64,000 nt of DNA from Rosellinia necatrix (taxonomy: Eukaryota > Ascomycota > Sordariomycetes > Xylariales > Xylariaceae): assembly GCA_021209875.1 (NCBI GenBank), contig JAGYVD010000008.1, forward strand, positions 2,231,501-2,295,500. The letters run 5' to 3'. The position numbers and the translations under genes were made by a program. Below, in pieces: positions 39,228 through 41,108 of the stretch. Below the pieces are notes generated by a model. It searched no databases, was not told the DNA's origin, and saw only the letters and a program-made list of their open reading frames with translations. Every line of letters begins with the position of its first letter. The first letter of the stretch is position 1.

Positions 39228-40951
39228 TGGGAAAGAAAACTAAGCTGAAACGAACACGAGCAATAGATTAATACGAAGGCCGGAAGCTTTTAGCAGCATA
39301 TATATAAGCCGAAGTGGCTAAATCCACGGTAGCTACACCCTATTAGTCTGACTTGTAATTCCAGCGATAATAAATCACCTGGCGCATACGCACTGGTACT
39401 TCTGAACCAAGTTGTCTGTTTACTTGGTGCAGTGGCTTATACTGGTCTGCAGGTCCTACGGCTCCGACAGCCGCAGTGTGACTGTACGAATTTCTATCGT
39501 GGTTGACCGTCACAAAGATCGGTGCCCCTTTTGATTATACTGTTGTGCCAAGCACCGGGTCAATGCTGTCCCTGCGTGGTGTTATGAAAGCCGTGACTCT
39601 TCTAGACATGCTATTGCCGGCGCTTCAAGCGCGATTTCCTAGCCTCTCAAAGGTATAGACACCTCGCTGTAAGATATGCTGGTGAACGTACTGGTAAAGG
39701 TGATGATTTATCGCCGTAAAATTGGTAAGATTGTCAACTGCAATGCAACAAGGCGACAGTGGAACTCAGGCTGCTGATATCACTAGAAGCAAGGATACCT
39801 ATAATGAAGCTCATGTCGTCGATGACGCCATCCTCGGGTTTAGTGGGTGTAGCGTAACAGTGGTTGAATGGCTTGCAGAATAGAAGGGACTTGCTTGTTT
39901 GCTTATTTAGCCAAGCAGGTGTCTGGACCCTTTATATATGTACGCTAGCGGCTGGATCCACTCAACCAAACCGTTGATTGACCTAAATATCTGGTCATCC
40001 TATTGGAAATACCCTAGAAGCGGTACGCTGTCGTTCTGTGAGGAGGGCTCGAAACTGTCGCGAAACGAGGAGCTCTCAAACAGCGGTTGATAAGGTTGGG
40101 ATTCTTTTACCCCTCGCATGATTTGACAGTCTCTTAAGAATATCCGTCTTCAAAAAAAAAAAAAAAAAGCATCCAGCCAAGATACACGACACCCCCCCGT
40201 ATAGTTACTATCGAGGGAACAGTAACCATCGCAGTACGGCCGATACCGCCGGTAGCCATTCTTGCATGCGCGATATGTAATAGGCTTCGTGATTTAGGTG
40301 GAGTGGGCACTGAAACGCCACCACGCATTGTCAGCATCGAGCTAGAGGCTTGATGCTCGTCATCAGCCTGGCGGAAACACGCTCCCGTAGCCACAGGCCG
40401 GTAGCGTGGGCTTGGCCGCCGGCAGCCCGGGTCGCTGAGATAACGGCCTTCCTAGTCTACATATGGATGTTACGTACCCCCTCCACGCTCTGCAGTCAAT
40501 ACCTTGCCTACGTATACCTTGCCTATGTATACCTTGCCTATGTATACCTTGCCTACATATTTGTCCTTGTTGTTTGTAACACCCAGCAATGATAGCATGG
40601 GCTGCCGGCAGTTTGATTGGGACTGGGCAACAACTGCCATGGCAATTAATAAAGCACACCTTGGGCGCATTGCCGGGATCGCGAGGATGATGACCGATTT
40701 CAGCTGCTCATGTTCCGAACCGGTCGCCCATGGACTTTAGATATGCAAGTAGTTATTTGGAATACGGCGGAAGACAAGTACATTGCAAAGATGCAAGGAA
40801 CTGAGAACAAACCTATTAAAAAGAGGCATTAGAGAAATGGAACTAAATATGGAAAAGTTAAAAAGAAGAGCAAAAAAAGAGGGAAGAGCGAAGATGAAAT
40901 CTAACAAGAAAAAATTGAGTTACTCCCATAGTCGGGAGGCATCAGGAATTG
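39228..40951. other. Intergenic, P450 upstream region to tRNA
   Basis: Contains A16 at about 40,151-40,167 and four copies of a 15-mer at 40,501-40,560. There are no convincing open frames. Directly next to the tRNA 3' end is a small hairpin (CTCCC/GGGAG, 40,922-40,937) and a minus-strand T6 (40,909-40,914) that could stop RNA polymerase III. Confidence 0.5.
40501..40560. repeat. Tandem repeat, four copies of a 15-mer
   Basis: Units read ACCTTGCCTATGTAT with single-base variants (CGTAT, ACATAT), four consecutive copies, about 390 bp from the tRNA gene. Confidence 0.9.
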
Positions 40952-41108
40952 AGCCCGATGCGGGGGTCGAACCTAGTGGATAGGGTTAGCAACTTATAAC
41001 ACCAAGAATTTTTTGGAATTTTTTTTTGTTTTTTTTTTTTCCTCGGTAACACATACCCGCAACCTTGAGATTAAGAGTCTCACGCTCTACCGATTGAGCT
41101 AACCGGGC
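40952..41108 (-). tRNA. tRNA-Lys(CTT) interrupted in the T-arm
   Basis: The 5' exon, 41108-41057 (52 nt), holds the acceptor GCCCGGT, D-stem GCTC/GAGC, anticodon stem TGAGA/TCTCA around loop CTCTTAA (anticodon CTT, + strand 41,073-41,075), variable AGGTT and T-stem start GCGG. The 3' exon, 40972-40952 (21 nt), supplies G-TTCGACC-CCCGC (T-stem and loop), acceptor ATCGGGC and discriminator T. Joined, they form a complete 73-nt cloverleaf with every stem paired (one G-T pair in the acceptor) and no intron at the usual position 37/38. A-box TAGCTCAATCGG is intact, and B-box GGTTCGACCC spans the 3' junction, so polymerase III promoter elements survive. The 84-bp insert lies between nucleotides 52 and 53. 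Confidence 0.88.
40973..41056 (-). other. Spliceosomal-type intron within a tRNA gene
   Basis: 84 bp on the minus strand beginning GTATGT (41,056-41,051) and ending CACTAG, with a branch-site match GCTAAC at 40,990-40,985 whose branch A lies 13 nt before the last base. The middle is A-rich (A12-C-A9). Size, donor, branch and acceptor match the mRNA introns of this window. Because a G is shared, the junction is ambiguous by one base, but the GT-AG register is available. Exact removal restores the T-stem. Confidence 0.75.

What the first reader, a model, noticed from the sequence alone, without database searches (positions are those of the whole stretch)
40952..41108. A spliceosomal-type intron inside the T-arm of a nuclear tRNA-Lys gene
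Seen: a perfect 73-nt tRNA-Lys(CTT) split between nucleotides 52 and 53 by 84 bp that starts GTATGT, has GCTAAC with its branch A 13 nt from the end and finishes CTAG. Exact removal rebuilds the T-stem GCGGG/CCCGC and T-loop TTCGACC. The insert has the size and signals of the mRNA introns of the same window. Known: nuclear tRNA introns of fungi sit at 37/38 and are cut by the tRNA endonuclease, while spliceosomal introns in polymerase III RNAs are best known from U6 snRNA. Inference: an mRNA-type intron was gained by a tRNA gene, perhaps by reverse splicing, and either the spliceosome handles a polymerase III transcript or the copy is dead. A- and B-box survive, the B-box being rebuilt across the acceptor.
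Basis: partly seen in the sequence, partly recalled or inferred. Interest (0 to 1): 0.93.

Follow-up and report, generated by a model that had tools for sequence, protein, structure and literature searches.

The report
mRNA-type introns in fungal tRNA-Lys genes
Four of the seven lysine-tRNA (CTT) genes found in this fungus are split at the same point by introns that look like those of messenger RNA, and the conservation pattern suggests that the spliceosome, not the usual tRNA-splicing enzyme, removes them; that would be a new way of making a tRNA, but no RNA evidence was available here.

Summary
Confirmed, and not a single oddity. An exact core pattern finds seven tRNA-Lys(CTT) genes. Three are uninterrupted; four are split between nt 52 and 53 (T-arm) by inserts of 84 (window), 66, 59 and 59 nt. 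All four inserts read GTRWGT...YTRAY (12-13 nt after the branch A)...AG. Insert bodies are at or near chance identity (44-64%), while joined tRNA halves are 97-100% identical. A further interrupted copy is decayed in exons, donor and acceptor. Both U6 snRNA genes found carry mRNA-type introns, so this organism presumably already splices a Pol III RNA. No complete bulge-helix-bulge forms at the junctions; no further insert copies were found. Best reading: U2-type introns, kept under selection and removed by the spliceosome to give functional tRNA-Lys(CUU). All seven genes share a covarying two-hairpin trailer whose first hairpin pairs with the tRNA's acceptor strand. Splicing itself was not observed: no RNA data and no related fungal genomes were at hand.

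The parts
41057..41108 (-). tRNA-Lys(CTT) 5' exon, nt 1-52, with A-box and anticodon
   Evidence: identical to nt 1-52 of the six other tRNA-Lys(CTT) genes; Rfam tRNA hit
41090..41101 (-). A-box TAGCTCAATCGG
   Evidence: read from sequence; motif name recalled
41073..41075 (-). anticodon CTT
   Evidence: sequence; ARAGORN calls (ctt) on the three uninterrupted copies
40973..41056 (-). 84-nt mRNA-type intron GTATGT...GCTAAC...CTAG
   Evidence: no other copy found in the genome
40985..40989 (-). branch site CTAAC, branch A at 40986, 13 nt between it and the end of the intron
40952..40972 (-). tRNA-Lys(CTT) 3' exon, nt 53-73
   Evidence: identical to the three uninterrupted copies
40963..40973 (-). 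B-box GGTTCGACCCC, its first G being the last G of the intron
   Evidence: read from sequence; motif name recalled
40939..40961 (-). hairpin 1: tRNA nt 64-71 (GCATCGGG) pairs with trailer CCTGATGC across the loop CTCAATT
   Evidence: present in 7 of 7 genes, one pair with a compensatory change, 100% of cells paired
40923..40938 (-). trailer hairpin 2, CTCCC/GGGAG
   Evidence: covarying in the 7 genes: 4 of 6 pairs have changes on both sides, 95.2% of cells paired
40909..40914 (-). T6 run, presumed Pol III terminator
   Evidence: sequence; the trailer of each of the 7 tRNA-Lys(CTT) genes runs into a T run of at least five

Best explanation
The insert is a U2-type spliceosomal intron inside a working nuclear tRNA-Lys(CTT) gene. 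Pol III transcribes 5' exon, intron, 3' exon and trailer from an intact A-box and a B-box that reuses the intron's last G, and stops at the T run (inferred). The spliceosome removes the intron by the ordinary GT / branch A / AG chemistry (inferred). Only then can the T-arm and acceptor stem form and the ends be processed (inferred). The intron was probably gained once in an ancestral tRNA-Lys(CTT) gene, which then spread to at least five loci; four still look functional and one has decayed. Shown: four interrupted genes, one site, shared signals, near-random intron bodies, conserved exons, intron-bearing U6 genes. Inferred: transcription, splicing, and translation by the spliced product.
For: Seven genes match the exact core pattern, none the reversed control: 4 interrupted at the same site, 3 not. 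All 4 inserts have GTRWGT, YTRAY with 12-13 nt after the branch A, terminal AG, and no AG between branch and end. Chance is about 1e-5 per insert. Intron identities are 44-64% against shuffled means of 46-48%, while exon identities are 97.3-100%. Among the four copies there is 1 substitution in 292 exon positions plus one extra C; the decayed copy L084 has 13 substitutions in 73 plus a 2-nt deletion (counted on the alignments; Fisher p = 4e-9), and its insert begins GC and ends AA. Column 18 of the trailer alignment is U in 4 of 4 interrupted and C in 3 of 3 uninterrupted genes, as one gain or one loss would give. Both U6 genes found have introns of 53 and 60 nt with GTGAGT...CTAAC...CAG. Frame-derived introns of the window's own genes look alike, e.g. 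61 nt GTAAGT..CTAAC, 65 nt GTGAGT..CTAAT, 68 nt GTAAGT..CTAAT. Genome patterns for branch-AG-B-box gave 8 rows (5 rows on the 4 Lys loci, 3 others) and 3 rows (1 nuclear, 2 on contig C12); the 4 other nuclear places show no tRNA. In S. pombe a Pol III U6 transcript with an mRNA-type intron is spliced (PMC8917221, passages seen).
Against: No RNA evidence. Gene conversion with uninterrupted copies could help keep the exons alike. One interrupted copy (C1c) has an extra C in the 3' exon and may be impaired, or carry a homopolymer error of the assembly. Absence of TTTT in the four introns fits Pol III but is uninformative (product of the shuffle probabilities is about 0.5). One intron pair (window/C1c) is 64% identical, 2 SD above its shuffled mean, so bodies may not be fully randomised. 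Three intact uninterrupted genes could supply the tRNA alone.
Confidence: 0.8

Rival explanations
1. The interrupted copies are dead or dying genes; the inserts are leftover introns or insertions, and only the three uninterrupted copies make tRNA.
For: Three intact uninterrupted copies exist. One further interrupted copy is clearly decayed. C1c has an extra C. A review says that T-arm insertions in eukaryotic tRNA genes are mostly found in one of many synonymous genes and are supposed to be pseudogenes (PMC4090602, section 5 read).
Against: Intron bodies are near random while exons, donor, branch, acceptor, B-box, trailer hairpins and T run are kept in the four copies. The decayed copy shows changes in exons and splice sites and has no TTTT in the stretch read after its trailer. 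Here 4 of 7 genes have the insert, not one of many.
Confidence: 0.12
2. The inserts are removed by the tRNA splicing endonuclease as T-arm introns of the kind known from red algae and nucleomorphs.
For: Such introns exist elsewhere in eukaryotes (PMC4090602, section 5), and other tRNAs of this genome have ordinary anticodon-loop introns (ARAGORN). C1c can form a near-complete motif (3 of 4 central pairs with both flanks), but so do 136 of 1000 shuffles.
Against: 0 of 4 inserts form a complete bulge-helix-bulge (4 central pairs, both flanks of 2 or more) in any of the four valid registers; shuffles do in 12-14 of 1000, so this is absence of support rather than a strong exclusion. Conservation lies in the GT, branch and AG signals instead.
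Confidence: 0.03
3. The loci are parts of Pol II long non-coding RNAs that are spliced as mRNA is, and the tRNA sequence is only a passenger.
For: The splice signals are of mRNA type; nothing here excludes Pol II read-through.
Against: Intact A- and B-boxes and T runs; the upstream 60 nt are unalike among the seven genes (15-44% over full alignments; 39-60% over aligned columns among the four interrupted ones); what is conserved is the tRNA and the trailer hairpins.
Confidence: 0.04

Closest known systems
mRNA-type introns of U6 snRNA genes (S. pombe; both U6 genes found in this genome)
   Same: U2-type intron in a small Pol III RNA; here the U6 introns have the same signals and hold a B-box-like motif
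   Different: the host RNA is a tRNA, with the site in the T-arm; U6 is itself part of the spliceosome, a tRNA is not
canonical nuclear tRNA introns at 37/38
   Same: interrupt a nuclear tRNA gene and must leave before function
   Different: those sit beside the anticodon and are cut by the tRNA endonuclease (PMC3978253, passages); these sit at 52/53 with GT-branch-AG and no complete bulge-helix-bulge
T-arm introns of nucleomorph and red algal tRNAs
   Same: the intron lies outside the anticodon loop, in some cases in the T-arm
   Different: non-canonical ones in the Guillardia theta nucleomorph are 3-24 nt, and in the red alga C. merolae bulge-helix-bulge motifs seem critical (PMC4090602, section 5); these are 59-84 nt with spliceosomal signals
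Introners (mobile spliceosomal introns)
   Same: a new spliceosomal intron appearing in a gene (recalled, and the start of the abstract of PMC9860276 in the listing)
   Different: no sequence-similar copies found in the genome

Membership tests
U2-type spliceosomal intron | GTRNGT donor, CTRAY-like branch site, AG acceptor | tested here: met
   4 of 4 inserts, with YTRAY for the branch
U2-type spliceosomal intron | exact removal restores a functional exon sequence | tested here: met
   3 of 4 give a 73-nt tRNA (2 identical to the uninterrupted genes, 1 with a single substitution); the fourth has one extra C
U2-type spliceosomal intron | removal as a lariat by the spliceosome | not testable with these tools
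   no RNA data held
mRNA-type intron in a Pol III RNA (U6 type) | Pol III promoter and terminator around the intron | tested here: met
   A-box, B-box and T run by sequence only; polymerase use not shown
tRNA-endonuclease intron | position 37/38 | tested here: not met
   the inserts lie at 52/53
tRNA-endonuclease intron | bulge-helix-bulge at the junctions | tested here: not met
   0 of 4 complete; 1 of 4 (C1c) near-complete, as 136 of 1000 shuffles are. The eukaryotic enzyme can also work by measuring distance (PMC4090602), which this does not test
Group I or II intron | catalytic core, hundreds of nt | tested here: not met
   inserts of 59-84 nt; no such Rfam hit in the window at gathering score; core size recalled
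Introner or transposable element | similar copies elsewhere in the genome | tested here: not met
   each of the four inserts matches only its own locus (simple repeats are skipped by that search)

The most novel reading that the evidence does not exclude
In this fungal lineage the spliceosome is a regular tRNA-maturation machine: 4 of the 7 genes found for tRNA-Lys(CTT) depend on it, which ties AAG decoding to splicing capacity. The conserved trailer hairpin holds the acceptor strand away until the intron is gone, so that end processing waits for splicing. This would be a class of tRNA intron beside group I, group II and endonuclease introns.
Probability: 0.45. Interest if true: 0.96.

Novelty: new variant of a known kind. 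Interest (0 to 1): 0.9.

Why it matters
Reviews state that nuclear tRNA introns sit at 37/38 and are cut by the tRNA endonuclease, with algal exceptions, and that T-arm insertions are mostly supposed to be pseudogenes (PMC3978253 passages; PMC4090602 section 5). A tRNA kept functional by the spliceosome would break the separation of tRNA and mRNA splicing, show that a strongly folded Pol III transcript can be a spliceosome substrate, and give a test bed for intron gain in non-coding RNA. Annotation can miss such genes: ARAGORN, with introns allowed, missed C1a and C1c and put the intron after nt 38 in the other two. The listings of my ten paper searches (several capped at the first 15-20 of up to 764 papers) showed no report of an mRNA-type intron in a tRNA gene. 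They cover open PMC papers only, so earlier description elsewhere is not excluded.

Tried and rejected
Tested and dropped: (1) Insert as a repeat or mobile element: no other copies found. (2) Endonuclease intron: a first score listed only the best configuration per register and left out one valid register; repeated in full: 0 of 4 complete, 1 of 4 near-complete (C1c), neither beyond shuffles. (3) T-run avoidance in the introns as proof of Pol III transcription: not significant. (4) A-richness of the introns as a distinct class: the window and C10a introns are extreme against a small, redundant set of 16 frame-derived mRNA candidates (9 of them overlap at one locus), C1c and C1a are ordinary; no claim made. 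(5) Other tRNAs with T-arm introns, by branch-AG-B-box patterns: only the four Lys genes (the 3 + 1 other nuclear places hold no tRNA by Rfam or ARAGORN; two rows on C12, taken for mitochondrial, were not read). The backward control also had 8 hits, so the count alone proves nothing; the pattern needs AG before GTTCRA and a YTRAY close by, and tRNA genes were not fully enumerated. (6) Relatives: no exact match to two tRNA-Lys(CTT) patterns in 2 viral contigs and 2 genome-contig scans, collections of viruses and of bacteria and archaea, so the age is unknown. (7) Other Pol III RNAs: the SRP RNA hit spans 286 nt against a 293-position model, so no intron is evident; RNase P RNA was not detected at all (uninformative). 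(8) Organism: the ITS looks like a xylarialean ascomycete from recall only; no search confirmed it.

Full report
Check of the observation. The minus strand at 41108-40952 reads 52 nt of tRNA-Lys(CTT), an 84-nt insert, and the remaining 21 nt. The insert reads GTATGT...GCTAAC...CTAG, with 13 nt after the branch A. The joined 73 nt fold as a cloverleaf. The B-box GGTTCGACCCC survives because the intron's last G replaces the exon G. Rfam at gathering score sees only a 5' part in the window.

The gene family. An exact search with TCAAGGTTGCGGGT finds seven places in 49.1 Mb and none for the reversed control: seven tRNA-Lys(CTT) genes; diverged copies such as L084 escape this pattern. Three are uninterrupted (C4, C2, C1b). 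Four are interrupted at the identical site GCGG|GTTCGA: window/C10b 84 nt, C10a 66 nt, C1c 59 nt, C1a 59 nt. They begin GTATGT, GTAAGT, GTGAGT and GTGAGT, hold CTAAC, TTAAT, CTAAT and TTAAC with 13, 12, 13 and 13 nt after the branch A, and end in AG with no earlier AG after the branch. Letter shuffles reach such a signature in 1 of 100,000 trials for each insert, all sliding registers allowed.

Selection. Pairwise identity of the introns is 0.44-0.64 over the six pairs (shuffled means 0.46-0.48); joined exons are 0.973-1.000 identical. The four copies show one substitution (C10a) and one inserted C (C1c) in 292 positions. A further interrupted copy at C3:3844768 (L084; found by its trailer, read) has 13 substitutions and a 2-nt deletion in 73 exon positions, a GC donor, an AA end and a 102-nt insert (Fisher p = 4e-9). 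It shows how a dead copy decays, and the four others do not look like that. Gene conversion could also keep the exons alike, so this is strong but not conclusive evidence for use.

The organism presumably splices another Pol III RNA. Both U6 genes found (47 of 2321 first-look candidates scored) match the 105-position model over 153 and 160 nt and carry introns of 53 and 60 nt, GTGAGT...AGTACTAAC...CAG, with B-box-like GTTCGAACC or GGTTCGAGTC inside. [quoted passage not shown] pombe (PMC8917221, passages).

Not an endonuclease, self-splicing or mobile intron. No complete bulge-helix-bulge forms at the junctions in any of the four valid registers (0 of 4); C1c has a near-complete one, as 136 of 1000 shuffles have. 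The size excludes group I or II introns (core size recalled). No copy of the four inserts was found elsewhere. Ordinary introns beside the anticodon are called by ARAGORN in other tRNAs of this genome such as Lys(TTT), Pro and Leu, so the normal pathway exists beside this one.

History. In trailer alignment A1, column 18 is U in all 4 interrupted and C in all 3 uninterrupted genes, and the decayed copy also has T there. One gain before the copies spread, or one loss in the ancestor of the uninterrupted copies, fits better than repeated gains, but this rests on few sites. With no related fungal genome held, the age cannot be given.

The trailer. All seven genes are followed by two hairpins and a T run; in the five copies that ARAGORN called, TTTT begins 36-43 nt after the tRNA. 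Of 40 other nuclear tRNA rows in that call, 34 have TTTT within 30 nt; the 6 exceptions are 3 Ala copies and 3 tRNAs followed by another tRNA. Hairpin 1 pairs tRNA nt 64-71 with the trailer, with a T-loop-like CTCAATT loop (CTCAAAT in C4). The only exon substitution among the interrupted copies (C10a) is matched by a compensatory change in the trailer. Over both hairpins 98% of cells pair and 5 of 14 pairs change on both sides; no shuffle of 500 reaches these or the covariation score, while the number of further pair types (9) is reached by 74 of 500 shuffles. The structure was taken from these same sequences and the shuffles ignore relatedness, so the support is good but not independent. In predicted minimum-energy folds hairpin 1 forms in 3 of 4 unspliced precursors and in 1 of 3 intronless or spliced ones. 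I infer that it can hold the acceptor strand until the T-arm is complete; since intronless genes have it too, it must also serve another end, perhaps as a second B-box (GGCTCAATTCC, one mismatch to a recalled consensus) or in end processing.

Limits. No RNA data; no relatives; tRNA genes not fully enumerated (63 of 1701 first-look candidates scored); the mRNA-intron comparison set is small and redundant. Organism named by recall only. The listings of ten literature searches showed no earlier report.

Noticed in passing
L040:115-210, L053 and L057 (own genome C3, C11, C8): The three tRNA-Ala(AGC) copies read share a conserved trailer GGAGGTTCAATTCCYYC, a T-arm or B-box-like hairpin just after the tRNA, which recalls the trailer of tRNA-Lys(CTT).
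   Followed up: partly
L074 and L075 (U6 genes on C8 and C4): Both U6 snRNA genes found have mRNA-type introns that contain a B-box-like motif.
   Followed up: partly
L084 around 1300-1560 (C3:3844768): A decayed interrupted tRNA-Lys copy; 10 of its 13 exon substitutions are C-to-T or G-to-A, as repeat-induced point mutation would give (counted on the alignments).
   Followed up: partly
G000 contig C12: tRNAs recur at an offset of about 114.7 kb (71544 and 186278; pattern hits 34531 and 149243), as if a circular mitochondrial genome had been assembled past its own start.
   Followed up: no
L003 (C1:6656740), 3' exon: One extra C in the homopolymer of the T-arm; either an impaired copy or an assembly error.
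   Followed up: no
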